Part shown: in pieces, positions 20,553 through 37,426 of the stretch | Layout: every line of letters starts with the position of its first letter | Position numbering within the stretch: the stretch's first letter is position 1 | DNA from: Actinomycetota bacterium | GTDB taxonomy: Bacteria > Actinomycetota > Thermoleophilia > Solirubrobacterales > Solirubrobacteraceae | Reading direction: 5' to 3' | NCBI GenBank assembly: GCA_009699245.1 | Contig: WLOQ01000007.1 | Location: 1 to 64,000, forward strand | Length of the DNA stretch: 64,000 bases | Notes under the pieces: model-generated | The model's input: the letters and a program-made list of their open reading frames with translations, nothing else | What the model was told of the DNA's origin: nothing | The model's database searches: none | Program-made: the position numbers and the translations under genes

Positions 20553-23500
20553 TCAGGACCCGGCGTCGGCTGAGACGGCCTGCGCCTCGGCGACGTCGTC
20601 CGGATCCTCGTCGGTGATCTCCGCGAGGCGGGCGGGATCGCGGTCGCTGCCGGCGATCACGTCGTCCGCGCGCTGGCGATCCTCCGTGGGCAGGCGGCCG
20701 GACTTCATGCCGAAGTACGTCGCATCAGGGTGGTGGGCGATCACGGCGAGGGTCGACTGCTCCGGCTCCGGTGCGAACCCGGGGGAGATCGACATGCCGA
20801 TCTGCGCGAGGTCGAGGAGCGCCTCGACCTTCAGGTGCTCGGACTGGTCCGGAACAGCCGGGTAGCCCCACGAGTAGCGGCGGCCCTGCGTGCGCTCGAT
20901 GCCGAGGTCGGCGCGCACGCGCGAGTGAAGCCACTCCGCGAGGCCCTCGGCGGTCTGGACGCCGAGGCCATGAACGAAGAGCTGCTCGGCGAACTCGCCG
21001 TCGGCCTCAAGGCGCGCCATGAGCTCGGTGACCTCGCTGCCGGAGGTGACCGCCGTGATCGCGACGACGTCGAGCTTGCCGCTGTCCTTCGGGCGGTAGA
21101 AGTCGGCGAGGCACAGCCGGTCGTGGCCCGGCTGGCGCGGGCAGGTGAAGCGCGTGAGCTCGCGCGTGTGATCCTCGGGGTCGAGAAGCACGATGTCGTT
21201 CCCCTCCGAGTAGCAGGGGAAGTAGCCGAGCAGAGCGCGCGGCTGCAGGTAGTCCTGCTCACGCCACATCCGCTCAAGGCGCGGCTGGAAGTCGTCGCGC
21301 AGAAGCTCGCGCCAGGCCTCGCCCTTGACGCCGCGTCCGCCCCAATGCAGCTTGAAGAGCACGTGCGTGTCGAGGTGGTGGTAGAGCTCGTCGAGGTCGA
21401 CGGGGATCTCGCGCACACCCCAGAACGGCGGGGCGGGGACCGGATTGTCGGCGCGCGCCGGTGAGCGCACGGTGTCGTCGTCGGTCGGGAGCTCCTCGGG
21501 CTCGGGGCCCTGCTGGCGCAGGCGCAGGGCGTCCTGCGCGACCTGCGCCTTGAGCGCTGCGCGCGCCTCCGGGTCGACGAGCTGATCCATGACGCCGAGC
21601 CCCTCGAAGGCGTCCTTGCAGTAGAAGACGCCGCCGCCGTAGAGGTCGTCGTCGGCGGTGCCGTGCGGGAAGGACGCGCGCAGGCTGAAGACGCGGTTGA
21701 TCGCCGCGCCGCCGATGAGCACGGGGTAGTCGAGCCCCTGTTCGTGGAGCTCCTGGACGCAGAGCGGCATCTGCTTCGAGGTGGAGACGAGCAGGGCGCT
21801 GAGGCCGATCGCCGTCGCGTCGTGCTCCTTGGCCGCATCGATCACCGTCTGGACCGGCACCTGCTTGCCGAGGTCGATGACGGTGTATCCGTTGTTCGTG
21901 AGGATCGTGTTGACGAGCGACTTGCCGATGTCGTGCACGTCGCCGAAGACGGTGGCGAGGACCACGGTGCCCTTCGTGTAGCCCTCGATGCGATCGAGGT
22001 AGCGCTCAAGGCGCGCGACCGCGCGCTTCATCACCTCGGCCGACTGGAGGACGAACGGCAGGATGAGCTCGCCGGCGCCGAACTTGTCGCCGACCTCCTT
22101 CATCGCCGGGAGGAGGACGTCGTTGAGGGTCGGCACGGCGCCGAGCTTCTCGACGGCGCGGTCGACCCAGTCCTCGACGCCGTCCTTGCGGCGGCGCAGG
22201 ATATGGAAGTGCAGCGCCTCCTCGGGCTCCATGCCCTCGGTGGGATCGGCGCTGCCGGCCTCCTCCTCCTCGGCGCCCTTCGACTCGAAGTGCCCGATGA
22301 ACCGCTCAAGCGCGTCCTCGCGCCGGTTGAGCACGAGGTCGTCGGCGAGTTCGCGCTCCTCCTCACTGATCTCGCCGTAGGGCGTGATGTGGTTCGGGTT
22401 GACCATCGCGAGGTCGAGCCCGGCGTCGACGCAGTGATGCAGGAAGACGGAGTTCAGGACGGCGCGCGCGCGGGGCGAGATGCCGAAGGAGACGTTGGAG
22501 ACGCCGAGGGACGTCAGGACCCCGGGGATCTGCGCCTTGATCTGACGGATGCCCTCGATCGTCTCGACCGCCGAGGGCCGCCATTCCTCGTCGCCCGTGG
22601 TGAGCGTGAAGGTCAGCGCGTCGAAGATCAGCGCCTCGCGCTCGAGGCCGTGCGCGGCGCAGAGGTCGGTGATGCGCTGGGCGATCTCCACCTTGCGCTC
22701 GGCGGTCTTCGCCATCCCGACCTCGTCGATCGTCAGCGCGATCACGGCGGCGCCGTGGGCGACCGCGAGCGGGACGACCTCGTCGAGCTTGCCCGACCCG
22801 GCCTCGAGGTTGACGGAGTTCACGATGGCCCGGCCCGAGGAGGCTTCAAGCGCTGCGCGGATGACCACGGGCTCGGTCGAGTCGATCTGGATCGGCGACG
22901 GCTGCGATAGCGAGACGCGCTTGACGACCTCGCGCATCTGCTCGTCCTCGTCGGTGCGCTCGGTCAGCGCGACACAGAGGTCGAGCACGTGCGCGCCGCC
23001 CTCGACCTGGTCCTCGGCGATCTGCACGAGCCCGTCGTAGTCATCGGCGAGGAGCAGCTCCTTCGCCTTGCGCGAGCCCTGCGAGTTGACGCGCTCGCCG
23101 ACGATCGTCGGCGTCGGATCCTGGACGAGCGCCGTGGCCGTCATCAGCGAGCTGACGCGCGCCGGGCGGCGGGCCGGGCGGGGGGCGGGGGTGCGCCCGC
23201 CGCAGCGCTCGGCGATCGCGCGGATGTGGTCGGGCGTCGTGCCGCAGCAGCCGCCGACGATCCCGACGCCGTAGCGCTCGACGAATTCGCCGAGGACGCT
23301 TGCGAGCTGCTCGGGGCCCTCGGGGAAGATCGTCTCGCCGTCGGCGCCCTGCTGTGGGAGCCCGGCGTTGGGGATGCAGTGGACGGGGACGCTCGCGAAC
23401 TCGCCGAGGAAGCGGATCGCGTCGCGCATGTCCTCGGGGCCGGTCGAGCAGTTCAGCCCGATGACGTCGACCTTCAGCGACTCGAGCGTCGTGAGGACGG

Positions 23501-24119
23501 CGTCGATGTCGGTGCCGAGGAGCATCTTGCCGCCGTTGGGCAGCAGGGAGACGGAGACCTGGATCGGCACGCGGCGGCCGGTGGCGGTGAACGCCTCGCG
23601 CGTGCCGAAGATCGCGGCCTTCACCTCAAGGATGTCCTGTGCCGTCTCGATGATGATGAGGTCGGCGCCGCCCTCGACGAGGCCGCGGGCCTGCTCCTCG
23701 AAGACGGTCACGAGCTCGCCGAAGCGGATCGCGCCGAGCGTCGGGTCGTCGGAGGCGGGGAGGTGGCCGGTCGGGCCGATTGACCCGGCGACGAAGCGGT
23801 GCTCGCCGACCGCCTTGCGCGCGATCTCGACGGCGCGGCGGTTGATCTCGAGCGTGTGCTCGGCGAGGCCCCACTCCTCGAGCTTCAGGCGGCTCGCCTG
23901 GAAGGTATCCGTCTCGACGACCTCGGCCCCCGCCTCGACCATCGTGGCGTGGACGCCCTCGATCACGTCGGGGCGGTTGAGGATCAGCGCCTCGTGGCAC
24001 TTCCCCTGGAGTCCGCCGTAATCCTCAGCGGTCAGCTCGAACTGCTCGAGCGTCGCGCCCATGCCCCCGTCGAAGATGACGACGTGGTCGCGGACGGCGG
24101 CGAGGTAATCACGGGGCAT
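20553..24119 (-). CDS. metH: Cobalamin-dependent methionine synthase
   Basis: Transfers methyl from 5-methyltetrahydrofolate to homocysteine through B12. All four domains are present in 1188 residues. The homocysteine domain (1 to about 310) has zinc cysteines in VIGLNCSTGPED and VGGCCGTTPDH. The folate domain (about 330-600) begins IVGERVNSQGS. The cobalamin domain contains GDVHDIGKSL with the cobalt-binding histidine at about 729 and the cap before it. The AdoMet reactivation domain fills the C-terminus. TAGCCT is 6 bases before the ATG, so it is probably leaderless. No cobalamin riboswitch fits in the short upstream space. Confidence 0.96.
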   Translation of the reverse strand: MPRDYLAAVRDHVVIFDGGMGATLEQFELTAEDYGGLQGKCHEALILNRPDVIEGVHATMVEAGAEVVETDTFQASRLKLEEWGLAEHTLEINRRAVEIARKAVGEHRFVAGSIGPTGHLPASDDPTLGAIRFGELVTVFEEQARGLVEGGADLIIIETAQDILEVKAAIFGTREAFTATGRRVPIQVSVSLLPNGGKMLLGTDIDAVLTTLESLKVDVIGLNCSTGPEDMRDAIRFLGEFASVPVHCIPNAGLPQQGADGETIFPEGPEQLASVLGEFVERYGVGIVGGCCGTTPDHIRAIAERCGGRTPAPRPARRPARVSSLMTATALVQDPTPTIVGERVNSQGSRKAKELLLADDYDGLVQIAEDQVEGGAHVLDLCVALTERTDEDEQMREVVKRVSLSQPSPIQIDSTEPVVIRAALEASSGRAIVNSVNLEAGSGKLDEVVPLAVAHGAAVIALTIDEVGMAKTAERKVEIAQRITDLCAAHGLEREALIFDALTFTLTTGDEEWRPSAVETIEGIRQIKAQIPGVLTSLGVSNVSFGISPRARAVLNSVFLHHCVDAGLDLAMVNPNHITPYGEISEEERELADDLVLNRREDALERFIGHFESKGAEEEEAGSADPTEGMEPEEALHFHILRRRKDGVEDWVDRAVEKLGAVPTLNDVLLPAMKEVGDKFGAGELILPFVLQSAEVMKRAVARLERYLDRIEGYTKGTVVLATVFGDVHDIGKSLVNTILTNNGYTVIDLGKQVPVQTVIDAAKEHDATAIGLSALLVSTSKQMPLCVQELHEQGLDYPVLIGGAAINRVFSLRASFPHGTADDDLYGGGVFYCKDAFEGLGVMDQLVDPEARAALKAQVAQDALRLRQQGPEPEELPTDDDTVRSPARADNPVPAPPFWGVREIPVDLDELYHHLDTHVLFKLHWGGRGVKGEAWRELLRDDFQPRLERMWREQDYLQPRALLGYFPCYSEGNDIVLLDPEDHTRELTRFTCPRQPGHDRLCLADFYRPKDSGKLDVVAITAVTSGSEVTELMARLEADGEFAEQLFVHGLGVQTAEGLAEWLHSRVRADLGIERTQGRRYSWGYPAVPDQSEHLKVEALLDLAQIGMSISPGFAPEPEQSTLAVIAHHPDATYFGMKSGRLPTEDRQRADDVIAGSDRDPARLAEITDEDPDDVAEAQAVSADAGS

Positions 24120-24190: not shown

Positions 24191-26338
24191 CTACTTGATG
24201 AACAGCATCTCGCTGTACTTGGGCAGCGGCCACAGGTCGTCCGCGACGAGCTTCTCGAGCCGGTCAGCGACCTCGCGCGTGGCATTCATCGCGGGGATGA
24301 CCTTGTCGCGCATGTACTTCGCGTGGGTCAGGCCCTCCTCGGAGGGATGGTTCGCGTTGACCTTCTCGAGCACCTTGATCTGCTTGAGGAACTCGTCGGC
24401 GGTGCTCTTGAGCTCCGTCGCGGCCGGGGTCAGGCCGGCGGCCTTGAGCTCCGTGAGGTAGCGCACCGCGGCGGGGAGGATCATCGTGCGGGCCATCGAT
24501 GCGGCGGTCTCCGCCTCGATGTTGAGCTTCGTCGAGTACTGCTCGACGGCCACCTCGTAGCGGGACTCGAGCTCGCGCTCGGAGAGCACTTCGTAGCGCT
24601 CGAATGCACGGATGGTGGCCTTCTCGACGAGCCACGGAAGGGCGTCCGGCGTTGTCGGCAGGTTGGCGAGGCCGCGCTTGGCAGCCTCCTTGTGCCAGGC
24701 GTCGGAGTAGCCGTCGCCGCCGAAGACGATGCGCTTGTGCTTCTTCCAGGCGCCCTTGACGACCTCGAGGACCGCCTCGTCGCGCGACTTGCCCTTCGCC
24801 TGCAGCGCCTCGATCTTGTCGACGAAGGCATCGATCGCCTCGGCGACGATCGTGTTGAGCGTCGTGTTGATGAGGCCGATCGACATGCTCGAGCCCGGTG
24901 CGCGGAACTCGAACTTGTTGCCCGTGAAGGCGAACGGCGAGGTGCGGTTGCGGTCGCCGCCGTGGAGCGGCAGCGGCGGCAGGACCGGCGTGCCGAGCCC
25001 GAGGAAGTTCCCCTTGTTGCTCTCTGAGCCCTTGCCGGCCGCGACGGCGTCGAACGCCCGCTCGAGCTCGCCGCCCAGGAAGACCGAGATGATCGCGGGC
25101 GGCGCCTCATTGGCCCCGAGGCGGTGATCCTGGCCGGCCGTGGCCACGGTCGCGCGCAGGAGTTGCTGGTGGGTGTCGACCGCCGAGAGGACGGCGGCGC
25201 AGAAGAACAGGAACTGGATGTTGTCGGCCGGCGTGTCGCCCGGATCGAGCAGGTTGTGGCCGCTGTCGGTGCCCATCGACCAGTTGTTGTGCTTGCCCGA
25301 GCCGTTGACGCCGGCGAAGGGCTTCTCGTGGAGCAGGCAGACGAGGCCGTAGCGACGCGCGACGTTCTGCAGCACCTGCATCGTCAGCTGCTGATGGTCG
25401 GAGCCGACGTTCGAGCTCTCGAACATCGGGGCCAGCTCGTACTGCGCCGGCGCGACCTCGTTGTGGCGGGTCTTGATCGGGACGCCGAGGCGCTGGAGCT
25501 CACGCTCGACCTCGAGCATGTAGGCGAGCACGCGCTCGGGGATCGAGCCGAAGTAGTGCTCGTCGAGCTCGTGACCCTTCGGCGGCTTGGCGCCGAAGAG
25601 CGTGCGGCCCGTCGTGTAGAGGTCGGGGCGCTCGTAGTAGTACTGCTCGTCGATCAGGAAGTACTCCTGCTCCGGGCCGACGGTCGTGAAGATCCGGGTC
25701 GTCGTCTTGTCGCCGAAGACCTTCAGCGCGCGCAGGGCGACCCTCGAGAGCGCATCCATCGAGCGCAGGAGCGGGATCTTCTGGTCGAGCGCCTCGCCGG
25801 TCCACGACACGAAGGCCGTCGGGATGCAGAGGAAGCTGCCGTTCGGGTTCTCGAGGATGAACGCCGGGGACGTGGGGTCCCACGCGGTGTAGCCGCGCGC
25901 CTCGAAGGTCGCGCGGATGCCGCCCGTGGGGAACGACGAGGCGTCCGGCTCGCCCTGGATCAGCTCCTTGCCGGAGAACTCGGCGATCGCGGTGCCGTCA
26001 CCGGAAGGATTGAAGAAGGAGTCGTGCTTCTCGGCGGTCAGCCCGGTCAGCGGCTGGAACCAGTGCGTGTAGTGCGTCGCGCCGCGCTCCATCGCCCATT
26101 CGCGCATCTCCTTGGCGACGACGTCGGCGAGGGCTGGGTCGAGCGGCGCGCCGGCCGAGAGCGTGGCCTCGAGCTTGCGGTAGACCTCCTTGGGGAGGCG
26201 CTGACGCTGCACAGCCGTGCTGAAGACGTTCTCGCCGTAGACGTTCGCCGCGAGCTTGCTCAGATCGACGGTGCCGTCCCCGCCGACGCTGCTCCACTGC
26301 GCCGCGTTGACGTTGGCATGACGGTTCTTCGTGGCCAT
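24191..26338 (-). CDS. glnN: Glutamine synthetase, type III
   Basis: ATP-dependent ligation of ammonia to glutamate. The length of 715 residues fits GSIII (about 700-730) and not GSI (about 470). Characteristic parts are the N-terminal extension with ENVFS (about 34-38), [12 protein letters not shown], the metal and ATP residues in PEQEYFLID, the ammonia/substrate site [18 protein letters not shown], and the long C-terminal helical tail. GSI-type adenylylation is not expected. Divergent from amt-glnK, separated by 224 bases that contain paired dyads. AAGGA lies about 6 bases before the ATG. Confidence 0.96.
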
Positions 26339-26422
26339 GGGGTCCTTGGATTCCTCTCGACGGTGACGCACTGACGGCGCGCATGACACTAGGCGCGCGG
26401 GTCGCACCAGACCTTATCCCGA

Positions 26423-26453
26423 TGTCCAAAGTCGCAGCCGGTCCATTTGGACA
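26423..26453. promoter_or_regulatory. Dyad 1 in the glnN-amt control region
   Basis: TGTCCAAA (26423-26430) and TTTGGACA (26446-26453) are perfect inverted copies separated by 15 bases. The arm sequence matches that of dyad 2, which suggests one dimeric regulator binding both. Confidence 0.6.
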
Positions 26454-26464
26454 CGCGGTGGAGG

Positions 26465-26494
26465 TGTCGAAACGCCGCCTCCAAACCTTCGACA
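26465..26494. promoter_or_regulatory. Dyad 2 in the glnN-amt control region
   Basis: TGTCGAAA (26465-26472) and CTTCGACA (26487-26494) are inverted with 14 bases between; seven of eight arm positions pair. Together with dyad 1 the consensus is TGTCSAAA...YTTSGACA. The centres are about 41-42 bases apart, close to four helical turns. Confidence 0.6.
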
Positions 26495-26562
26495 TGGGGC
26501 CAATGGAGGACGCGCGAGCACAACGCAGACTGCGCTGCACACCCCGACCCCATGGAGGATCC

Positions 26563-28020
26563 ATGAGACGTTCACTCGGCCTACGGGCCATGTGCGTGGT
26601 ACTTGCGTTGTCGCTGCTCGCTCCGGCGGCGGCGAGCGCTGATGTCTGGCAGGCCAAGGGCGTGCCGGAATCCGTCGGCATCAACACCCTCTGGGTGGTG
26701 ATCGCCGCCGTCCTCGTGATCTTCATGCAGGTCGGCTTCATGTTCCTCGAGATCGGCTTCTCCCGCGGGAAGAACGCCGGCACGATCGTCGCGAAGATCT
26801 TCACGAACTTCTCGATCGCCGCGATCCTCTACTGGGCGGTCGGATTCGCGTTCGCCTTCGGCGGAGGCCTCGGCCACGTGATCGGCACGGAGGGCTTCTT
26901 CCTGCGTGACTTCGGGAACCCGACGGATGCGTTCCCGATCATGGGCTTCTCCGACGCCACGATCGAGGCGAAGTGGCTGTTCCAGTTCTCATTCTGCGCC
27001 GTCTCGCTGGCGATCGTCTGGGGCACGACGCTCGAGCGCATCAAGTTCGGCGTCTACGTCATCTACGCGATCTTCTTCGCGGCGCTGATCTACCCGATCT
27101 TCTCGGGCTGGGTCTTCGGCGGCGGCTGGCTGCAGGCGAACGTCGGCATGCAGGACTTCGCCGGTTCGACGGCGGTCCACCTCATCGGCGCCACCGGCGG
27201 TCTCGCGGTCCTGCTGCTGCTCGGAGCCCGCAAGGGCAAGTACGGCCCTGACGGCAAGCCGCGGGCGATCCCCGGCCACAACATGCCGCTGTTCGGCCTG
27301 AGCGTCGGCATCCTGCTCATCGGCTGGTTCGGGTTCAACCCGGGCTCGACCCTCAACGCGCTCGACACCCGCTTTGCGGAGGTCGCCGTCGTGACGCTCC
27401 TCGCCGCGGGCGCCGGTGCGCTCGGTGCGCTCGTCACCTCGTGGAGGATCACGAAGACGATCGACATCGGCATGGTCGGCAACGGCGTGATCGGTGCACT
27501 CGTCGCGATCACGGCCCCGTCGGGCTACGTCGTCCCCTGGGCCGGCGTCGTCATCGGCCTCGTGGCCGGCGTGATCGTGCCGCTCGGCGTCTACGCGATC
27601 GACAAGAAGCTCGACGACCCGGTGGGTGCGCTCACCGCGCACGGCCTCTGCGGCATCTGGGGGACGCTCTCGTGCGGCCTCTTCACCCTCCCGGCACTGG
27701 CGGAGTTCAACACCGTCGGCAAGGGCGGGCTCCTCTACACCGGTTCCTTCTCGCAGCTCGGGAACCAGGCGCTCGGTGTGGTGGTCGTGTTCGTGGGCGT
27801 CTTCGTGACCAGCTACCTCGTGTTCTGGCTCATCAAGAAGACCTACGGCCTGCGCGTCACCGAGGAGGAGGAGTTCCAGGGACTCGACATCTCCGAGCAC
27901 GGGATGTACGGGTACCCGGAGCAGTTCATTCCCGCATCCGAGCTCGTGGGCTACGGTGCGGCACCCCAGCATGGCGCAGCGGTCTCCGCCGGCGCTGCAA
28001 CGACGGAGGTCACGGCATGA
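26563..28020 (+). CDS. amtB: Ammonium transporter (Amt/AmtB)
   Basis: Trimeric membrane channel for ammonium. 485 residues, with a signal peptide (about 1-26, ending ASAD) and eleven membrane helices. The twin-histidine pore is supported by DFAGSTAVHLIGATGG and LTAHGLCGIWG. GWFGFNPGSTLNAL is a highly conserved family block. The cytoplasmic tail (from about 430) is longer than usual. The ATG has a strong GGAGGA site. It overlaps glnK by 4 bases (ATGA), so the pair is translationally coupled. Confidence 0.95.
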   Translation: MRRSLGLRAMCVVLALSLLAPAAASADVWQAKGVPESVGINTLWVVIAAVLVIFMQVGFMFLEIGFSRGKNAGTIVAKIFTNFSIAAILYWAVGFAFAFGGGLGHVIGTEGFFLRDFGNPTDAFPIMGFSDATIEAKWLFQFSFCAVSLAIVWGTTLERIKFGVYVIYAIFFAALIYPIFSGWVFGGGWLQANVGMQDFAGSTAVHLIGATGGLAVLLLLGARKGKYGPDGKPRAIPGHNMPLFGLSVGILLIGWFGFNPGSTLNALDTRFAEVAVVTLLAAGAGALGALVTSWRITKTIDIGMVGNGVIGALVAITAPSGYVVPWAGVVIGLVAGVIVPLGVYAIDKKLDDPVGALTAHGLCGIWGTLSCGLFTLPALAEFNTVGKGGLLYTGSFSQLGNQALGVVVVFVGVFVTSYLVFWLIKKTYGLRVTEEEEFQGLDISEHGMYGYPEQFIPASELVGYGAAPQHGAAVSAGAATTEVTA

Positions 28021-29036: not shown

Positions 29037-29109
29037 GACTCGCGACGCTACCACAGGGCCCGGTGCGCGCCCGCAGCTGGAGGGCCGATGCGCCCACTCC
29101 CGATGGGGT

Positions 29110-29139
29110 TTGCGACCGATCCGCAGGCTCGCATAGAGT
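29110..29139 (+). promoter_or_regulatory. Promoter of the Mce operon
   Basis: TTGCGA (29110-29115), an 18-base spacer and TAGAGT (29134-29139) lie about 50 bases upstream of the first permease gene. A strong ribosome site (GGGGGAGGAGG) follows. This is a leadered promoter, fitting a well-translated operon. Confidence 0.5.
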
Positions 29140-29188
29140 CCACCGGCACCAGTCGGGTCGATCCAGCGAGCAGGGGGAGGAGGTGCAC

Positions 29189-29995
29189 GTGGTCCGCAGC
29201 GCCGCAGACCGGGCCACCGCGCCCGCCAGGAGCTTCTTCGAGGAGATCGGCGACATGATGATCCTCACGGGTCGCACGCTCGTCTCCGCGGTCCGGCCGC
29301 CGTATCCCTATGGCGGCGAGTTCGTCGCGCAGTTCCTCTTCGCGATGCGGCTCTGCTGGTTCCCGCTGCTCGTTTCGACCGTGGCGTTCGGCTACGCCGC
29401 CCCGGGCCTGCAGGCCGCGAACTTCCTCGTCCTCTTCGGCGCGCTCGATCGGCTCGGCGGGTTCTTCGTGCTCGCCTCGATCCGCGAGTTCGCGCCCTTC
29501 GTGACGGCGATCGTGCTCGCCGGCGTCGCCGGGACGGCGATCACGGCCGATCTCGGCGCCCGCAAGATCCGCGAGGAGCTCGATGCGCTCCAGGTCCTCG
29601 GCGTCGATCCGGTGAAGAACCTCGTCGTCCCGCGCTTCCTCGCCCTGATGCTCGTCACGGGCCTCTTCGACATCTACGCCCTGCTCTTCGGCATCCTCGG
29701 CGGCATCATGACAACGCTCGTGAACCACGCCCCGCTCGGGCCGTTCTGGGCGACGTTCTTCACCAACGCCTCGGTCACCGACCTCTGGGGGTCGGTGCTC
29801 AAGTGCACGCTCTTCGGGGCGATCATCGCGGTCGTCTGCTGTTACAAGGGGATGACGGCCTCCGGTGGCGCCGCGGGGGTCGGGCGCGCCGTGAACCAGG
29901 CAGTCGTCATCGCGTTCCTCGGGGTCTTCGCGTTCAACTACGTGTTCACGCAGACGCTGCTCGCGACCCATCCCGAGATCAACGTCATCCGGTAG
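29189..29995 (+). CDS. yrbEA: Mce-system permease YrbE-A (MlaE family)
   Basis: One of two integral membrane subunits of the Mce lipid importer. 268 residues with about six hydrophobic segments. The MlaE signature is clear: AIVLAGVAGTAITADLGARKIREELDALQVLGVDPVK, where the E-x-D-A-L motif contacts the ATPase. GTG start with GGGGGAGG at good spacing; GTG at 29183 is an alternative. The second permease follows after 8 bases. Confidence 0.92.
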   Translation: MVRSAADRATAPARSFFEEIGDMMILTGRTLVSAVRPPYPYGGEFVAQFLFAMRLCWFPLLVSTVAFGYAAPGLQAANFLVLFGALDRLGGFFVLASIREFAPFVTAIVLAGVAGTAITADLGARKIREELDALQVLGVDPVKNLVVPRFLALMLVTGLFDIYALLFGILGGIMTTLVNHAPLGPFWATFFTNASVTDLWGSVLKCTLFGAIIAVVCCYKGMTASGGAAGVGRAVNQAVVIAFLGVFAFNYVFTQTLLATHPEINVIR

Positions 29996-30003
29996 ACGCA
30001 GCC

Positions 30004-30807
30004 GTGCAACCGAACAGCTGGCTGAGCGTCCCACGCGACTGGATCGCCTCCTTCGGAGAGATCTCGAAGTTCGCCGGGCGCATGCTGCGCGACGTCCTCA
30101 CGCTGCGCGTCCTGCGCTTCTTCGGCGAGACGCTGCGCCAGGCGGGCATCCTCATCGTCTCCTCGACGCTCGTCATCTGGGGCCTCGTCTTCATCATCGG
30201 CCTGCAGTGCGGGATCGAGGGCGCGTACTTCAACCGCTCGGTCGGCGCGCCGGCCTACGCGGGCGTCTTCGCCGCGTGGTGCGACCTGCGCGAGCTCGTG
30301 CCCTACGCGTTCGGGTACATGATGGCCGCGAAGGTCGGCACGGGCATCGTCGCCGAGCTCGGTTCGATGCGGATTTCGGAGGAGATCGACGCCCTCGAAG
30401 TGATGGGGTTCGACTCGATGCTCTTCCTCTGCGCGACGCGCCTGCTGGCGGCGTGGATGGTGCTGCCCTTCATGTACGTTGCCGCTGTGGGAGCCGGTTT
30501 CCTGGCGAGTTATCTGGCGGTGGTGGTCCAGATCGGCGAGGTGTCGCAGGGCGGCTACTCGCTGATCTTCTGGCAATTCCAGAACCCGCCCGACCTCCTC
30601 TTCAGCGCGGCGAAGGCGATGACGATGGCGACGATCATCGTGCTCGTGGGCTGTTACTACGGCTACACGGCGCGCGGGGGACCGGTGGGCGTCGGGACGG
30701 CCACCGCGAAATCGATGGTGCTGAACATCGTGCTCGTGCATCTCATCGGGATGCTCGGCACACAGGTCTTCTGGGGCGCGAACCCGCGCGCACCGATCGG
30801 AGGATGA
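30004..30807 (+). CDS. yrbEB: Mce-system permease YrbE-B (MlaE family)
   Basis: Second permease subunit, 267 residues. It has the same motif as its partner, here VGTGIVAELGSMRISEEIDALEVMGFDSM, and a C-terminal GCYYGYTARGGPVGVGTATAKSMV block typical of YrbE proteins. The N-terminus (about 1-40) is an amphipathic segment. GTG start. The stop overlaps the next ATG (ATGA), linking it to the ATPase gene. Confidence 0.92.
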   Translation: MQPNSWLSVPRDWIASFGEISKFAGRMLRDVLTLRVLRFFGETLRQAGILIVSSTLVIWGLVFIIGLQCGIEGAYFNRSVGAPAYAGVFAAWCDLRELVPYAFGYMMAAKVGTGIVAELGSMRISEEIDALEVMGFDSMLFLCATRLLAAWMVLPFMYVAAVGAGFLASYLAVVVQIGEVSQGGYSLIFWQFQNPPDLLFSAAKAMTMATIIVLVGCYYGYTARGGPVGVGTATAKSMVLNIVLVHLIGMLGTQVFWGANPRAPIGG

Positions 30808-31670
30808 GCATGAGCGGCGATCTGCAGAGCAGCGGTCCCGACGTCGTCGACGAGGTGCAGCCCCCGCGCGAGGACGAGTACCACTGGCATACGGGCCTCA
30901 ACCGCCCGACCGGCGTGCCGGATGCCGTCGAGTTCCTCGGCGTGCACAAGGCGTTCGGCAGCAATCAGATCCTGCGCGGACTCAACATGGGGCTGCCCGA
31001 GGGCAAGATCTCGATGATCCTCGGGCCGTCGGGCACCGGCAAATCGGTCTGCATCAAGCACATGGTCGGTCTGCTCTATCCGGACGACGGCGACGTCCTC
31101 GTCCACGGACAGTCGGTCCCGTCGATGCGCGACCACGAGCTGTTCGAGATGCGCAAGAAGTTCGGCGTGCTCTTCCAGGACGGCGCGCTCTTCGGGTCGA
31201 TGAACCTCTATGACAACGTCGCCTTCCCGCTGCGGCAGCACACCGACAAGGGCGAGGACGAGATCCGTGACATCGTCAGCGGCCGCCTGCGCGAGGTCGG
31301 TCTCGGCGACTCCGGCGAGAAGATGCCGAACGAGCTCTCCGGCGGCATGCGCAAGCGCGCCGGGTTCGCGCGGGCGCTCGTCCTCGACCCGGACATCGTC
31401 CTCTTCGACGAGCCGGACTCGGGCCTCGACCCGGTCCGCACCGCGCTGCTCTGCGAGCTGATCCAGGAGATCCACGCGGAGAACGGCGGCGCCTACACGG
31501 TCATCACCCACGACATCATGAGCGCCCGCCGCGTGGCCGAGTACATCGCGGTGCTCTGGCGCGGGCGGATCGTCGAGGCCGGTCCCGCCGAGGAGCTCTT
31601 CAACTCCGAGAACGCCTTCGTCCGTCAGTTTCTCTCCGGCGCGGCCCAGGGCCCGCTCGGGATGGAGTGA
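30804..31670 (+). CDS. mceG: Mce-system ATPase (MceG/MlaF-like)
   Basis: Energises lipid uptake by the YrbE permeases. 288 residues with an extra N-terminal stretch of about 45. Walker A is GPSGTGKS, the Q loop is LFQDGALFGSM, the signature is LSGGMRKRAGFARAL, Walker B is IVLFDEPDSGLDP and the switch is THDIMSARR. The LSGGMRKR form and the FQDGAL phrase are typical of MlaF/Mkl ATPases. In mycobacteria mceG is unlinked to mce operons; here it sits inside one. Confidence 0.93.
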   Translation: MSMSGDLQSSGPDVVDEVQPPREDEYHWHTGLNRPTGVPDAVEFLGVHKAFGSNQILRGLNMGLPEGKISMILGPSGTGKSVCIKHMVGLLYPDDGDVLVHGQSVPSMRDHELFEMRKKFGVLFQDGALFGSMNLYDNVAFPLRQHTDKGEDEIRDIVSGRLREVGLGDSGEKMPNELSGGMRKRAGFARALVLDPDIVLFDEPDSGLDPVRTALLCELIQEIHAENGGAYTVITHDIMSARRVAEYIAVLWRGRIVEAGPAEELFNSENAFVRQFLSGAAQGPLGME

Positions 31671-31724
31671 GCCGGACCTCCGCTCGATGCCGACGACCGT
31701 CCATCAGACCGCGCCGGGGTGCGC

Positions 31725-33068
31725 ATGAGTCCCGCGAGGGGAATCGTCGCGGGGCTCTTCGCCGTCGCCGCGGTGCTGCTGGCGGTCGTGCTCCTGACGG
31801 GGGACTCGACGCGCGAGTATCGGATCGTCTTCCAGACGGCCGGGCAGCTCGTCAACGACAACGACGTCCAGATCGGCGGCCGGCGGATCGGCGCGGTCAA
31901 GGACATCCGCCTGACCGACGACAACCTCGCCGAGGTCACGGTCTCGGTGAAGAAGCCGTACGCGCCGCTGCACCGCGGCACGACGGCCACGATCCGCGCG
32001 ACGTCGATCTCCGGCGTCGCCAACCGCTACGTCGAGCTCTCGCCCGGGCCGACGAGCGCACCCGCGCTCGGGGACAACGCGATCATCGGTGAGGACCGCA
32101 CGACCACGATCGTCGACCTCGACCAGATCTTCAACAGCCTCGACGAGGAGACGAGCAAGGGCCTGCAGGAGGTCATCCGCGGCTTCGGGACGTGGTACGC
32201 CGGCAAGGGCGCGGAGGGGAACGCCGCAGCCAAGTACTTCTCGCCCGCGCTGACGCAGACCCGCCTCCTCGTCGAGCAGCTCAATGCCGACCGGCCCGCG
32301 CTGGAGACGGTGCTCACCGAGACGTCGAAGGTCGTCGCGACGCTCGCCTCGCAGGCGCCGACGCTCACGGACATGGTGTCGAACGCCAACACGACGCTCG
32401 GCGCAATCGCCGATGAGAATCGGTCGCTCGCGCAGGCGCTCGACTACCTGCCGCAGACCCTGCGCCGTGGCAGCACGACCTTCGTCAACCTGCGCAACGC
32501 GCTCGATGACGTCGACAAGCTCGTCGCCGCCTCGGGTCCGGCGACCGAGGACCTCGCTCCGTTTCTCGCCGAGCTGCGCCCGCTCCTTGAGACGGCGACG
32601 CCGACCTTCACCGACCTCTCGCGACTCGTGCGCACCCCCGGCGCCAACAACGACCTCACCGAGTTGCTGCGCACCGCGCCGTCGCTCGCCGCCCAAGGAT
32701 CGAAGACCTTCCCCGACTCGGTCAAGGCGCTCAACGCCTCGCTGCCGGTGCTGAGCTTCATCCGCCCGTACACCCCCGACCTCGTCGGCTGGCTGCGCGA
32801 CTTCGGGCAGTCGACGGCGAACTACGACGCCAACGGCCATTTCGCCCGCGTCGCCCCGGTCTTCAACGCCTTCAGCTACGACTCCGGGTCGAACACGCTG
32901 GTCCCCGTCGCGCCGGCGAACCGCAAGCCGGGCCTGCAGAACGGTCTCCAGTACATCCAGCGCTGCCCGGGCGCCGCGAGCCAGGCGCCGGCGGACGGCA
33001 GCGCGCCGTGGCGTGATGTGAGCGGCACACTCGACTGCGACTCCTCGATCGTCCTTCCAGGGCCGTGA
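31725..33068 (+). CDS. mceA: MCE-domain protein 1 of 6
   Basis: 447 residues with one N-terminal membrane helix (about 6-24) and then the MCE/MlaD domain (about 30-110: FQTAGQLVNDNDVQIGGRRIG). This is followed by a long helical region and a C-terminal part with two cysteines (RCPG and TLDCDSS). MCE proteins assemble as hexamers or stacked rings that shuttle lipids. It lies 54 bases after the ATPase. ATG was chosen; a GTG two codons earlier is also possible. No lipobox. Confidence 0.9.
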   Translation: MSPARGIVAGLFAVAAVLLAVVLLTGDSTREYRIVFQTAGQLVNDNDVQIGGRRIGAVKDIRLTDDNLAEVTVSVKKPYAPLHRGTTATIRATSISGVANRYVELSPGPTSAPALGDNAIIGEDRTTTIVDLDQIFNSLDEETSKGLQEVIRGFGTWYAGKGAEGNAAAKYFSPALTQTRLLVEQLNADRPALETVLTETSKVVATLASQAPTLTDMVSNANTTLGAIADENRSLAQALDYLPQTLRRGSTTFVNLRNALDDVDKLVAASGPATEDLAPFLAELRPLLETATPTFTDLSRLVRTPGANNDLTELLRTAPSLAAQGSKTFPDSVKALNASLPVLSFIRPYTPDLVGWLRDFGQSTANYDANGHFARVAPVFNAFSYDSGSNTLVPVAPANRKPGLQNGLQYIQRCPGAASQAPADGSAPWRDVSGTLDCDSSIVLPGP

Positions 33069-33075
33069 TCGGACG

Positions 33076-34488
33076 ATGAAGCGTCTTCTGGCCATCGCCG
33101 CCGTCCTGCTCTGCGCCGCCGCGCTCATCGTCTTCGCCGTGGGCGCCGGGAACGGCTCCGGCGGCTACAAGGTCCGCGCGATCTTCGACAACGCCGCATT
33201 CGTGATCCCCGGCATGGACGTGAAGATCGCCGGGGTCGTCGTCGGCGACGTCGACTCGATCGACCTCACCCCGCAGAAGCAGGCCGCGATGGTCCTCAAC
33301 ATCACCGATCCGGGGTACCGCGACTTCCGCGCCGACGCGTTCTGCACGATCCGCCCGCAGTCGCTGATCGGCGAACGCTACGTCGAGTGCAGCCCGTCGC
33401 GTCCCGGCGCCGTCGCGGCCCCGTCGCTGCAGCAGATCGCCGACGGCCCGGGCAAGGGTCAGTACCTGCTGCCGTCGAGCCAGACGAGCCGCTCGGTCGA
33501 CCTCGACCTGCTCAACAACATCATGCGGCTGCCGTTCCGCGAGCGCCTCACGATCTTTCTGAACGAGTTCGGAACAGGGCTCGCCGGCAACGGCGCCAAC
33601 CTGCAGGAGGCGCTGACGAAGTCGAGCCCGGCGCTGCGCGAACTCGACGAGGTGCTCAAGGTCCTCGCCTCCGAGAACCGGCGTCTCGCGCAGCTCGCCG
33701 TCGACGGCGATCGGGTCCTCGCCCCGCTCGCCCGCGAGCGCGCAAGCCTCGCCGGCTTCATCAACGCGTCCGCGGCGACCGCGCAGGCGACAGCCGAGCG
33801 CAGCGACGCGCTCGCGCAGGATCTGCGGTTGCTCCCCGGCTTCCTCAAGGAGGTCCAGCCGACCATGGACCAGCTCGGGGCGTTCGCGACGCAGTTCACG
33901 CCGATCGTCCAGGACCTGCAGGGCGTGACCTCGTCGCTCAACACGGTCGTGACGGGCGGCCCGCAGTTCACGAAGAACGCGACGATCGCGCTGGAGTCGC
34001 TCGGCGACACGGCCGACGTCACCGGCCCGCAGATCCAGAACTCGCTCGGCATGGTCCAGCAGGTCGGTGAGCTCACCCGTCAGGCGGCGCCGCTCTCGAC
34101 GAACCTCTCCTTGCTGCTGCGCTCGACCGACATGAAGGGCGGCATCAACCGCCTGCTCGACTTCGTCTTCTACGGCTCGGGCGGTGTCAACGCGTACGAC
34201 GAGTACGGCCACTACCTGCGCGCCCGGCTCATCCTCAACACCTGCCAGACGTACGCGACCGTCCAGCGCTCCGGCGACGGGTGCAGCTCGAACTTCCAGA
34301 AGGACTTCGGCGCCGTCACCACTCCGGCCGTGCCGAAGGGCGAGCCGACGAGCGTCCCGATTCCGTCGTCCCGCGCCACCCAGACGACCGTCCCGCGCGC
34401 CGTGACCCGCCGCAGCGCGACGAAGCCGGCGACGCCGGTCGAGACGCGCGACGCCCTGCCCCTCCTCGACTACCTCCTCGGCTCATGA
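33076..34488 (+). CDS. mceB: MCE-domain protein 2 of 6
   Basis: 470 residues: membrane helix (about 6-22), MCE domain (IFDNAAFVIPGMDVKIAGVVVGDV, with QSLIGERYVECSP), a helical middle with predicted coiled-coil character and a Pro/Thr-rich C-terminal tail with cysteines (NTCQTY and GDGCSS). The ECSP form after the domain is unusual beside the ELSPG/ELTPG of its neighbours. The stop overlaps the next ATG by 4 bases. Confidence 0.9.
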   Translation: MKRLLAIAAVLLCAAALIVFAVGAGNGSGGYKVRAIFDNAAFVIPGMDVKIAGVVVGDVDSIDLTPQKQAAMVLNITDPGYRDFRADAFCTIRPQSLIGERYVECSPSRPGAVAAPSLQQIADGPGKGQYLLPSSQTSRSVDLDLLNNIMRLPFRERLTIFLNEFGTGLAGNGANLQEALTKSSPALRELDEVLKVLASENRRLAQLAVDGDRVLAPLARERASLAGFINASAATAQATAERSDALAQDLRLLPGFLKEVQPTMDQLGAFATQFTPIVQDLQGVTSSLNTVVTGGPQFTKNATIALESLGDTADVTGPQIQNSLGMVQQVGELTRQAAPLSTNLSLLLRSTDMKGGINRLLDFVFYGSGGVNAYDEYGHYLRARLILNTCQTYATVQRSGDGCSSNFQKDFGAVTTPAVPKGEPTSVPIPSSRATQTTVPRAVTRRSATKPATPVETRDALPLLDYLLGS

Positions 34489-35924
34489 GCGGCGCGCGCC
34501 GGACAGCCTCGATCGCGGCGAACCCGATCCTCATCGGGGCGATCACAGCGCTCGTCGTCGTCGTCGCCGTCTTCCTCGCCTACAACGCGAACTCCGGCCT
34601 GCCGTTCGTCCCCACGTACGCCGTCAACGTCCAGGTGCCCAACGCCGCCGGCCTCGTGCGCGGCAACGACGTGCGCATCGGCGGCACGCGCGTAGGGACG
34701 GTCTCGAGCATCAAGGCGCAGACGCTGAAGTCGGGCCGGGTCATCGCCGTCCTCGGGCTGAAGCTCGAGACGGTCGTGAAGCCCCTGCCGACCGACACGC
34801 AGGTCCTGATCCGCCCGCGCTCGGCGCTCGGCCTGAAGTACGTCGAGCTGACCCGCGGGACGCGTGACAGCCAGCTCGCCGAGGGGGCGACGATCCCGCT
34901 GCGCAATGCGACGCCGCAGCCGGTCGAGCTCGACGAGTTCCTCGACACGTTCAGCACCCCGACGCGCCGCGCGATCCAGCAGAACCTCCTGACCGCCGGC
35001 ACCGCGTTCGCCGGACGCGGCCAGGATCTGAACTTCGCCGTTCAGGACCTCGCCCCGCTGCTCGACGAGCTCACGCCGGTGATGGCGAACCTCGCATCGG
35101 CGAAGACCGACCTGCGCGGCATGATCCGCGGGCTCGCCCAGAGCGCCGCTGTCGTGGCGCCGGTGGCCGGGGTCCAGGGCGACCTCGTGCGCCATCTCGA
35201 CGTGACGATGTCGGCGCTCGAGTCGGTCGCGCGCCCCTACCTCCAGGAGTCGATCTCCGAGGGCCCCGCGACGCTCACGGCCGCGACCCGCGACCTGCCG
35301 AAGCTGCGCCCGTTCCTCGCCGACGCCACAACCCTCATGCGCGAGCTCCAGCCGGGCGTCGCCGCGCTCGCGAGCGCCGCTCCGGACCTCGCGACCACCG
35401 TGCGCGTCGGGACGCCGGTCCTCGCCGACTCGCCGGCGTTCAATGCGCGCCTTGAGGACACGATCCAGACGCTCGAGACGTTCAGCACCGACGCGCTCGT
35501 GAAGGCCGGCGTGCGCGACCTCACCCAGACGACGGTGCTGCTCAACCCGACGGTCCTGCAGCTCACCCCGGCACAGACGGTCTGCAACTACGTCGCGCTG
35601 TGGTTCCGCAACGTCGCGAGCCTCCTCAGCGAGGGCGGCACCAACGGCACGATGCAGCGGTTCGCCGTCATCACCGCGCCCGGCAGTCTCCTGAACGCCC
35701 CGAACAATGAGGGCGGCCCGTCGTCGGCCCCGGCGAACGGGCCGACCGGCCCGGGCTATGACCCGAAGAACTTCCTCCACGCGAATCCCTATCCGTACAC
35801 GGCGGCCTCCGGCCAGCCCAAGACGTGTGCGGCGGGCAACGAGAAGTTCATCGGCGGGAAGACGGTGATCGGGAACGTCCCGGGCCAGCGGTCCACCACC
35901 CTCCACGACGACTCGGCCCCGTGA
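34485..35924 (+). CDS. mceC: MCE-domain protein 3 of 6
   Basis: 479 residues: helix at about 16-37, MCE domain (VQVPNAAGLVRGNDVRIGGTRVGTV, then RSALGLKYVELTRG), and a long helical region. The C-terminal tail is Asn/Gly/Pro-rich (NAPNNEGGPSSAP) and probably disordered. Two cysteines lie in the last third. The stop and next start overlap as TGATG. Confidence 0.9.
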   Translation: MSGARRTASIAANPILIGAITALVVVVAVFLAYNANSGLPFVPTYAVNVQVPNAAGLVRGNDVRIGGTRVGTVSSIKAQTLKSGRVIAVLGLKLETVVKPLPTDTQVLIRPRSALGLKYVELTRGTRDSQLAEGATIPLRNATPQPVELDEFLDTFSTPTRRAIQQNLLTAGTAFAGRGQDLNFAVQDLAPLLDELTPVMANLASAKTDLRGMIRGLAQSAAVVAPVAGVQGDLVRHLDVTMSALESVARPYLQESISEGPATLTAATRDLPKLRPFLADATTLMRELQPGVAALASAAPDLATTVRVGTPVLADSPAFNARLEDTIQTLETFSTDALVKAGVRDLTQTTVLLNPTVLQLTPAQTVCNYVALWFRNVASLLSEGGTNGTMQRFAVITAPGSLLNAPNNEGGPSSAPANGPTGPGYDPKNFLHANPYPYTAASGQPKTCAAGNEKFIGGKTVIGNVPGQRSTTLHDDSAP

Positions 35925-37426
35925 TGACGCTGCGGCGCACACCCAGGGCCGAGCGCCCGCGCATCCTGCGCAAGGACCGCCGCGGGGCGAACCCTGTGAC
36001 GGTCGGGCTGCTGATGCTGCTCGCCGTCGCGCTGATCGGCTACTTCGGGTTCACGAAGGACTGGCCGTTCTCGCGCGGCTTCGAGTTCCAGGCCGTCTTC
36101 AAGACCTCCAACTCGATCCGTCTCGACTCGCCCGTGCGCATCGCGGGCGTCAACGTCGGCAAGGTCAAGAAGATCGACGGCCAGGCAGGGACGAACAACG
36201 CCGTCATCACGATGGAGATCAAAAAGGACGGCCTGCCGATCCACAAGGACGCGCGCCTGAAGATTCGGCCGCGCATCTTCCTCGAGGGCAACTTCTTCGT
36301 GGACCTCCAGCCCGGGACTCCGGAGGCGCCGCGCCTGTCAGACGGCGACACGATTCCGGTCACGCAGACCGCCGGTCCGGTCCAGATCGATCAGATCCTG
36401 ACGGCACTCCAGCAGGACACCCGTAAGAGCCTGCAGACGACGCTCGTCGAGCTCGGCACGGCGCTGACGGCCAAGCCCACCGCCGAGCAGGATGCGAGCC
36501 AGGAGCCGGTCGTCCGTGGCCTCACCGCCGCCGATGCGCTGAACTCCGCACTGACCTACGGCGGCCCGGCGCTCGAGTCGACGGCCGTCGTCAATGAGGC
36601 GCTGCGCGGCCTCGCGGCCGATGACCTCTCCTCGCTCGTCGGCGGCCTCGCGCGCGTCGGGCGCAAGCTCAGCGGCAGCGAAGAGTCGCTCGTCACGCTC
36701 GTCCAGGGGTTCAACACGACGATGGCCGCGATGGCGGCCGAACAGGCGTCGCTGCGCACCGCTGTCGGCGAGCTCGGCCCGACCGTGAAGACGGCGTACA
36801 CGTCGCTCGGATCGCTCAACGCTGCGCTGCCGTCGGTGCGCGAGTTCTCGCTCGCGGTGATCCCCGGCGTGGAGGAGACGCCGGCGACGATCGCCGCGCT
36901 GACGCCGTGGATCGGGCCGACGAAGGCGCTGCTCTCGCCGGATGAGCTCGGGGGCCTCGTCGCAGATCTGCGGCCGGCGACCGCGAACCTCGCCTCTGCC
37001 GGGGCGAGCGGGGTCGGGCTGCTGCGCCAGGGCGATCTCCTGGCGCGCTGCATCGACCGCGTGATCCTCCCGGCCGGGAACGCCGTGATGCCCGACGGCC
37101 CGCTGACGACGGGCAAGGAGAACTACAAGGAGTTCTGGTACGCGATGGTCGGCCTCGCGGGTGAGGCGCAGAACTTCGACGGCAACGGGAACTACGTGCG
37201 CTTCCAGACCGGTGGCGGCGCCTATCCGGTCGCGCTCAAGGGCGGCAACCTCCAGAACAACCTGACGATGTACGGCAACTCCGCCGGCAAGCCCCTGGGC
37301 ACGAAGCCCAAGTGGTACGGCGTCACCGCGCGGCCGCCCTACGTCTTCAACAAGGCGTGTTACACCCAGGCGCTGCCGGAGTTCTCGAAGACGGCCACGG
37401 GCCCATCGGACGCGCAGACACCCTGA
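35924..37426 (+). CDS. mceD: MCE-domain protein 4 of 6
   Basis: 500 residues. A basic cytoplasmic N-terminus of about 25 residues (RRTPRAERPRILRKDRR) precedes the helix, then the MCE domain (KTSNSIRLDSPVRIAGVNVGKVKKI, RIFLEGNFFVDLQPG). The FVDLQPG ending differs from the other members. The C-terminal part is rich in Gly/Asn near a conserved KPLGTKPKWYG segment. The stop and next ATG overlap as TGATG. Confidence 0.9.
   Translation: MTLRRTPRAERPRILRKDRRGANPVTVGLLMLLAVALIGYFGFTKDWPFSRGFEFQAVFKTSNSIRLDSPVRIAGVNVGKVKKIDGQAGTNNAVITMEIKKDGLPIHKDARLKIRPRIFLEGNFFVDLQPGTPEAPRLSDGDTIPVTQTAGPVQIDQILTALQQDTRKSLQTTLVELGTALTAKPTAEQDASQEPVVRGLTAADALNSALTYGGPALESTAVVNEALRGLAADDLSSLVGGLARVGRKLSGSEESLVTLVQGFNTTMAAMAAEQASLRTAVGELGPTVKTAYTSLGSLNAALPSVREFSLAVIPGVEETPATIAALTPWIGPTKALLSPDELGGLVADLRPATANLASAGASGVGLLRQGDLLARCIDRVILPAGNAVMPDGPLTTGKENYKEFWYAMVGLAGEAQNFDGNGNYVRFQTGGGAYPVALKGGNLQNNLTMYGNSAGKPLGTKPKWYGVTARPPYVFNKACYTQALPEFSKTATGPSDAQTP

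What the first reader, a model, noticed from the sequence alone, without database searches (positions are those of the whole stretch)
26423..26494. Two matching dyads between divergent glnN and amt-glnK
TGTCCAAA-N15-TTTGGACA and TGTCGAAA-N14-CTTCGACA share the consensus TGTCSAAA...YTTSGACA and are about four helical turns apart. They do not look like the known GlnR (GTNAC-n6-GAAAC) or AmtR sites. They are good candidates for an unrecognised nitrogen-regulator operator.
Basis: partly seen in the sequence, partly recalled or inferred. Interest (0 to 1): 0.65.

Follow-up and report, generated by a model that had tools for sequence, protein, structure and literature searches.

The report
Twin operators between glnN and amt

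Summary
The letters of both dyads are present and non-random, but the dyads are not the operators. Relatives show that the conserved unit is a 16-bp inverted repeat, TTNKMC-N4-GKMNAA, present twice: 26414-26429 (glnN promoter, minus strand) and 26488-26503 (amt-glnK promoter, plus strand). Each dyad joins one arm of a real operator to a stray half-site; dyad 1 is absent from every relative, dyad 2 survives only in the closest. The 16-mer lies upstream of glnN in 27 of 27 diverse Thermoleophilia (>=15/16; 1.4 expected), 21 of 22 divergent regions hold exactly two, and the -10 box follows at a fixed distance that puts the centre near -42, with no -35 box: an activator site. The genome's only three perfect sites are these two and a second glnK-amt promoter. 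There is no sigma54, no GlnR box in the window, no clear GlnR homologue. Best regulator candidate: a PucR-family protein. In many relatives pucR is the third gene of the amt-glnK operon or lies divergent from glnN; standalone copies carry the site in their own promoter; known PucR sites (MabR TTTTGT-N9-ACAAAA) are similar. This genome has a single, unlinked PucR. The operator is near certain; the regulator's identity is inferred.

The parts
26414..26429 (-). Operator 1 (glnN promoter): TTGGACATCGGGATAA on the minus strand; inverted repeat TTRKMC-N4-GKMYAA
   Evidence: Conserved in 27/27 diverse Thermoleophilia upstream of glnN at >=15/16; one of 3 perfect sites in the genome
26386..26391 (-). 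-10 box of the glnN promoter (TAGTGT), 22 bp after operator 1; no -35 box
   Evidence: TANNNT at this distance (+-1) in 29 of 30 scored relatives
26488..26503 (+). Operator 2 (amt-glnK promoter): TTCGACATGGGGCCAA
   Evidence: Same inverted repeat at the amt side of all divergent relatives but L099, where the best amt-side match is 14/16
26526..26531 (+). -10-like box of the amt promoter (CAGACT), 22 bp after operator 2
   Evidence: CAGACT/AAGACT/CAGAGT/GAGACT at the same distance in most relatives
26446..26453 (+).
   Evidence: in relatives only G036 keeps it, as TTTAGACA; role unknown
26465..26472 (-).
   Evidence: kept only in G036
24191..26338 (-). glnN, glutamine synthetase type III (715 aa)
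   Evidence: Pfam GSIII_N, Gln-synt_C, Gln-synt_C-ter
26563..28020 (+). amt, ammonium transporter (485 aa)
   Evidence: Pfam PF00909, NCBIfam TIGR00836
28017..28385 (+). glnK, PII signalling protein (122 aa), overlapping the end of amt by 4 bp
   Evidence: Pfam PF00543

Best explanation
The glnN/amt-glnK intergenic region carries two independent copies of one 16-bp palindromic operator, TTNKMC-N4-GKMNAA, each centred about 42 bp upstream of the start of its own operon's transcript and taking the place of a -35 box. A dimeric activator binds each copy when nitrogen is scarce and recruits RNA polymerase to glnN on one side and amt-glnK on the other; a third perfect copy does the same for a second glnK-amt operon. 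The activator is most likely a PucR-family protein (C-terminal HTH_30, GGDEF-like domain); in this genome the only candidate of that family is the 409-aa protein at contig C16, about 39.1-40.4 kb. Shown by sequence: the operator, its symmetry, position relative to -10 boxes, conservation and target genes. Inferred: activation, the nitrogen signal, and the PucR identity, which is weaker for this genome than for relatives.
For: Operator: 15/16 or better upstream of glnN in 27/27 diverse loci against 1.4 expected in dinucleotide shuffles, 16/16 in 21/27 against 0.05. Profile of 24 distinct sites is symmetric about one centre only (inverted score 8.97, next best 0.7; best direct repeat 3.5 at shift 8). 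-10 at fixed distance in 29/30. All three perfect genomic places are promoters of glnN, amt-glnK and glnK2-amt2. In 130 family genomes the strict form TTKKACANNNGGAYAANG gives 25 matches against 5 for the reversed control; 20 lie before glnN, 1 before glnK2-amt2 (L163), 1 before a pucR gene (L165). PucR: that protein's orthologues are the third gene of the amt-glnK operon in 15 loci, are divergent from glnN with the operator between in L195, L018, L068, and the standalone copies L165 and L200 carry the operator at their own start. Published PucR-family sites are mostly inverted repeats: MabR TTTTGT-N9-ACAAAA (PMC5541348), PutR 17 bp, GabR 21 bp just upstream of -35 (PMC7652997); nearly all studied members are activators. 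No sigma54 in this genome; one PucR protein in it.
Against: This genome and its genus lack the amt-linked pucR clade as far as searched; their PucR belongs to another clade, in an unrelated neighbourhood, without the operator at its promoter. Operators are identical in genomes with and without the linked pucR (TTGGACATCGGGATAA in G017/G113 and here), so a factor shared by all must recognise them. TTGT and ACAA are 8 apart here, 9 in MabR. Counts alone are not above chance in the genome (0.10 per 64 kb in shuffles, about 3 per genome): the strength lies in where the sites fall. No binding or expression data exist.
Confidence: 0.6

Rival explanations
1. The same operators are bound by the genome's single clear CRP/FNR-type protein (L156), acting as a class II activator at about -42.
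For: A 16-bp inverted repeat centred near -42 is the classic class II CRP/FNR arrangement; the genome has one clear Crp-type protein with a cyclic-nucleotide domain.
Against: Its recognition helix (SSRESASR) resembles that of E. coli CRP, whose half-site is TGTGA (own knowledge), absent from TTRKMC; its gene is not near nitrogen genes.
Confidence: 0.13
2. A diverged GlnR (OmpR-family) protein binds the sites as tandem direct repeats.
For: GlnR is the usual actinobacterial regulator of these genes (PMC10704036); in some sites two AC steps are 11 bp apart as in GlnR boxes; nine OmpR-type hits exist here.
Confidence: 0.1
3. Another unlinked dimeric regulator (LuxR/NarL, GntR, MarR or other) is the cognate factor and the linked PucR is an accessory.
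For: The operator is kept in genomes without the linked pucR.
Against: Only PucR-type genes were seen repeatedly next to these operons and operators in relatives.
Confidence: 0.15
4. The two dyads as the reader drew them are the operators.
For: Near-perfect arms, unique in the genome.
Against: Absent from all relatives except dyad 2 in one close relative, while the overlapping 16-mers are universal.
Confidence: 0.02

Closest known systems
PucR-family operators (MabR TTTTGT-N9-ACAAAA; PutR 17-bp and GabR 21-bp inverted repeats)
   Same: Inverted repeat of a TTGT-like half-site about one helical turn apart; sits just upstream of or over -35; regulators mostly activators, several of nitrogen-compound genes
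   Different: Spacing is one base shorter than MabR's; targets are core ammonium assimilation (GS III, Amt, PII), not a catabolic or lipid pathway
GlnR boxes of actinomycetes (gTnAc-n6-GaAAc)
   Same: Regulate GS and amtB-glnK genes in the same phylum
   Different: GlnR boxes are tandem direct repeats; the present site is an inverted repeat and no GlnR box is in the window
NtcA / CRP-FNR class II sites
   Same: 14-16 bp palindrome centred near -41.5 replacing -35; NtcA activates glnA and amt in cyanobacteria (own knowledge)
   Different: Half-site and spacing differ (NtcA GTA-N8-TAC; here at best GTA-N6-TAC)

Membership tests
PucR-family regulator and its operator | Candidate protein has HTH_30 (PF13556) | tested here: met
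   Own PucR (L208) and the G027 protein both above cut-off; only one in the genome
PucR-family regulator and its operator | Operator is an inverted repeat with half-sites about one turn apart | tested here: met
   Symmetry analysis, half-site centres 10 bp apart; MabR recognition helices about 34 A apart (PMC11617747)
PucR-family regulator and its operator | Regulator gene linked to its targets | tested here: inconclusive
   Met in 18 loci of relatives, not met in this genome
PucR-family regulator and its operator | Protein binds the operator | not testable with these tools
   Needs EMSA, DAP-seq or footprint
GlnR (OmpR-type) system | GTNAC-n6-GNAAC box in target promoters | tested here: not met
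   0 in the window; consensus from PMC10704036
GlnR (OmpR-type) system | GlnR homologue in the genome | tested here: inconclusive
   Nine OmpR-type hits, best 36%
NtrC/sigma54 system | RpoN present | tested here: not met
   No Sigma54_DBD in the genome
CRP/FNR class II activation | Palindrome centred near -41.5 with -10 at fixed distance | tested here: met
   (position inferred from the -10 box, no mapped start)
CRP/FNR class II activation | Half-site TGTGA or TTGAT | tested here: not met
   Half-site is TTRKMC
AmtR (TetR-type) system | AmtR box or AmtR homologue | not tested
   Judged by eye only; no AmtR search was run

The most novel reading that the evidence does not exclude
Solirubrobacterales (and probably most Thermoleophilia) control central ammonium assimilation not by GlnR, AmtR or NtrC but by a PucR-family activator, often encoded in the amt-glnK operon itself, acting on a lineage-wide TTNKMC-N4-GKMNAA operator near -42.
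Probability: 0.55. Interest if true: 0.65.

Novelty: new variant of a known kind. Interest (0 to 1): 0.5.

Why it matters
GlnR and AmtR are the textbook nitrogen regulators of Actinobacteria, known from one class of the phylum. A conserved operator with a named candidate regulator in a deep, mostly uncultured class makes nitrogen control there directly testable, and would be, as far as I know, a first case of a PucR protein running core ammonium assimilation. Searches of the open papers found nothing on nitrogen gene regulation in this class.

Tried and rejected
The directional reading TTTSGACAnnnGGNYAA: first noticed, then replaced by the inverted repeat because paired columns are symmetric down to their alternative letters. 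Extra matches to the loose motif in genus genomes (mostly inside coding regions such as lipB- and ribE-like genes): taken as chance. GlnR, sigma54/NtrC: see membership tests. Other conserved neighbours of glnN: none seen to be a recurring regulator (neighbours judged by recurrence and reading, not all scanned). A type I GS-like locus (L108) and the OmpR/Crp loci of this genome: no operator at the strength searched except 15/16 matches in L153 and L155. Plasmid records with similar DNA: none.

Full report
Observation. The window is contig C17 of a 99.4%-complete genome; its closest named relatives are Solirubrobacterales MAGs. The flanking genes are a type III glutamine synthetase (glnN, minus), and amt and glnK (plus), confirmed by Pfam.

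What is conserved. I took the upstream regions of glnN from 27 diverse Thermoleophilia (the window included) and 12 same-genus loci. The glnN proteins of the diverse set are 64-80% identical to the window's and the intergenic DNA looks unrelated outside short blocks, so short conserved blocks are informative. A profile seeded on the window settled on one element, TTTGKACANNNGGAYAANG, with TANNNT 18+-1 bases after the 24-column block in 29 of 30 well-scored loci. Seeding on the window is a bias; the control is the shuffle test: a 16-mer matching TTNKMC-N4-GKMNAA at 15/16 or better is in 27/27 upstream regions (1.4 expected) and at 16/16 in 21/27 (0.05 expected). The pattern was drawn from the same loci, so these numbers describe the set rather than test it independently; the genome scans below are the independent test.

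Symmetry. Columns 5-10 and 15-20 of the profile are reverse complements of each other, including the alternative letters (R with Y, K with M). Only one centre gives an inverted score of note (8.97 against 0.7 for the next), and an 11-bp direct repeat as in GlnR boxes is not among the best shifts. Hence a dimer on a 16-bp inverted repeat with half-site centres 10 bp apart. If the -10 hexamer is -12 to -7, the centre is at about -42; no -35 box can be read there. This is the position of an activator that replaces -35 contacts.

Two operators, one per operon. In 21 of 22 divergent glnN/amt regions there are exactly two such 16-mers (15/16 or better), one before each gene; on the amt side a -10-like hexamer (CAGACT, AAGACT, CAGAGT, GAGACT) follows 22 bp downstream in most. 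Their distance varies from 73 to 156 bp, so they do not form one fixed nucleoprotein unit. In the window they are 26414-26429 and 26488-26503, 74 bp apart. Only the nearest relative (G036) keeps dyad 2, and none keeps dyad 1. The stray halves may bind weakly; nothing here shows it.

Genome-wide. TTNKMC-N4-GKMNAA has three perfect places in the genome: the two here and one shortly before glnK of a second glnK-amt operon (L144), which has a 15/16 copy 32 bp further upstream. Shuffles of the window predict 0.10 per 64 kb, about three per genome, and the reversed control found one place, so the count is unremarkable; that all three fall on ammonium-assimilation promoters is not. In 130 family genomes a stricter form gave 25 matches against 5 reversed-control matches: 20 before glnN, one before glnK2-amt2, one before a pucR gene; three had no nitrogen gene next to them.

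The regulator. The pucR gene of G027 (L165) was a lead from that scan. Its orthologues turned out to be the third gene of amt-glnK-pucR operons in 15 loci, and to lie divergent from glnN with the operator in between in L195 and, as a separate clade, in the distant L018 and L068; the standalone copies L165 and L200 have the operator at their own start. Published PucR-family sites are mostly inverted repeats: MabR TTTTGT-N9-ACAAAA (PMC5541348), PutR 17 bp, GabR 21 bp immediately upstream of -35, AdeR 24 bp; B. subtilis PucR itself is an exception (PMC7652997). MabR's recognition helices are about one turn apart (PMC11617747). From memory, PutR's site is TTGTGG-N5-CCACAA, even closer; I could not verify it.

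The weak point. This genome and the searched members of its genus lack the amt-linked clade. The genome's single PucR protein belongs to a second clade found in other genomes too, in a neighbourhood without nitrogen genes and without an operator of its own. Its HTH (TAQRLFTHRHTVRYRLERVRELSGLD) is close to the linked ones (TAAAIYAHRHTVAYRLDRVKELTGLD). Since operators are the same with and without the linked clade, I take this second PucR as the likely factor here, at perhaps one chance in two, and keep Crp (L156), an OmpR protein, and an unknown factor as rivals.

Excluded or weakened: sigma54/NtrC (no RpoN); GlnR box (none in the window); clear GlnR homologue (best 36%); Crp by half-site and unlinked context. 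AmtR was not searched for.

Verdict.

Noticed in passing
L144 (G000 contig C1, around 67464): A second glnK-amt operon with the same operator; a permease-like gene (SbtA-like by eye) is divergent from it, so the region may serve both directions.
   Followed up: partly
window 29063-37426: Two MlaE/YrbE-like permeases, an ABC ATPase and several consecutive Mce-type proteins follow the amt-glnK operon, i.e. an mce-like lipid-transport cluster outside mycobacteria (by reading the ORFs, no family search).
   Followed up: no
window 20553-24119: A metH-like gene (cobalamin-dependent methionine synthase, by eye) directly downstream of glnN; an ORF of this family recurs next to glnN in several relatives.
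   Followed up: no
L003, L089-L097, between the two operators: Same-genus relatives have a third, degenerate site (TTATCCAGATTGGAGA type) between the two operators, roughly where the window has its two inner half-sites.
   Followed up: partly
L208:943-2169 (G000 contig C16, about 39.1-40.4 kb): The genome's only PucR-type protein, in a neighbourhood shared by relatives (PAP2-phosphatase-like and glmU-like genes by eye), unlinked to nitrogen genes.
   Followed up: partly
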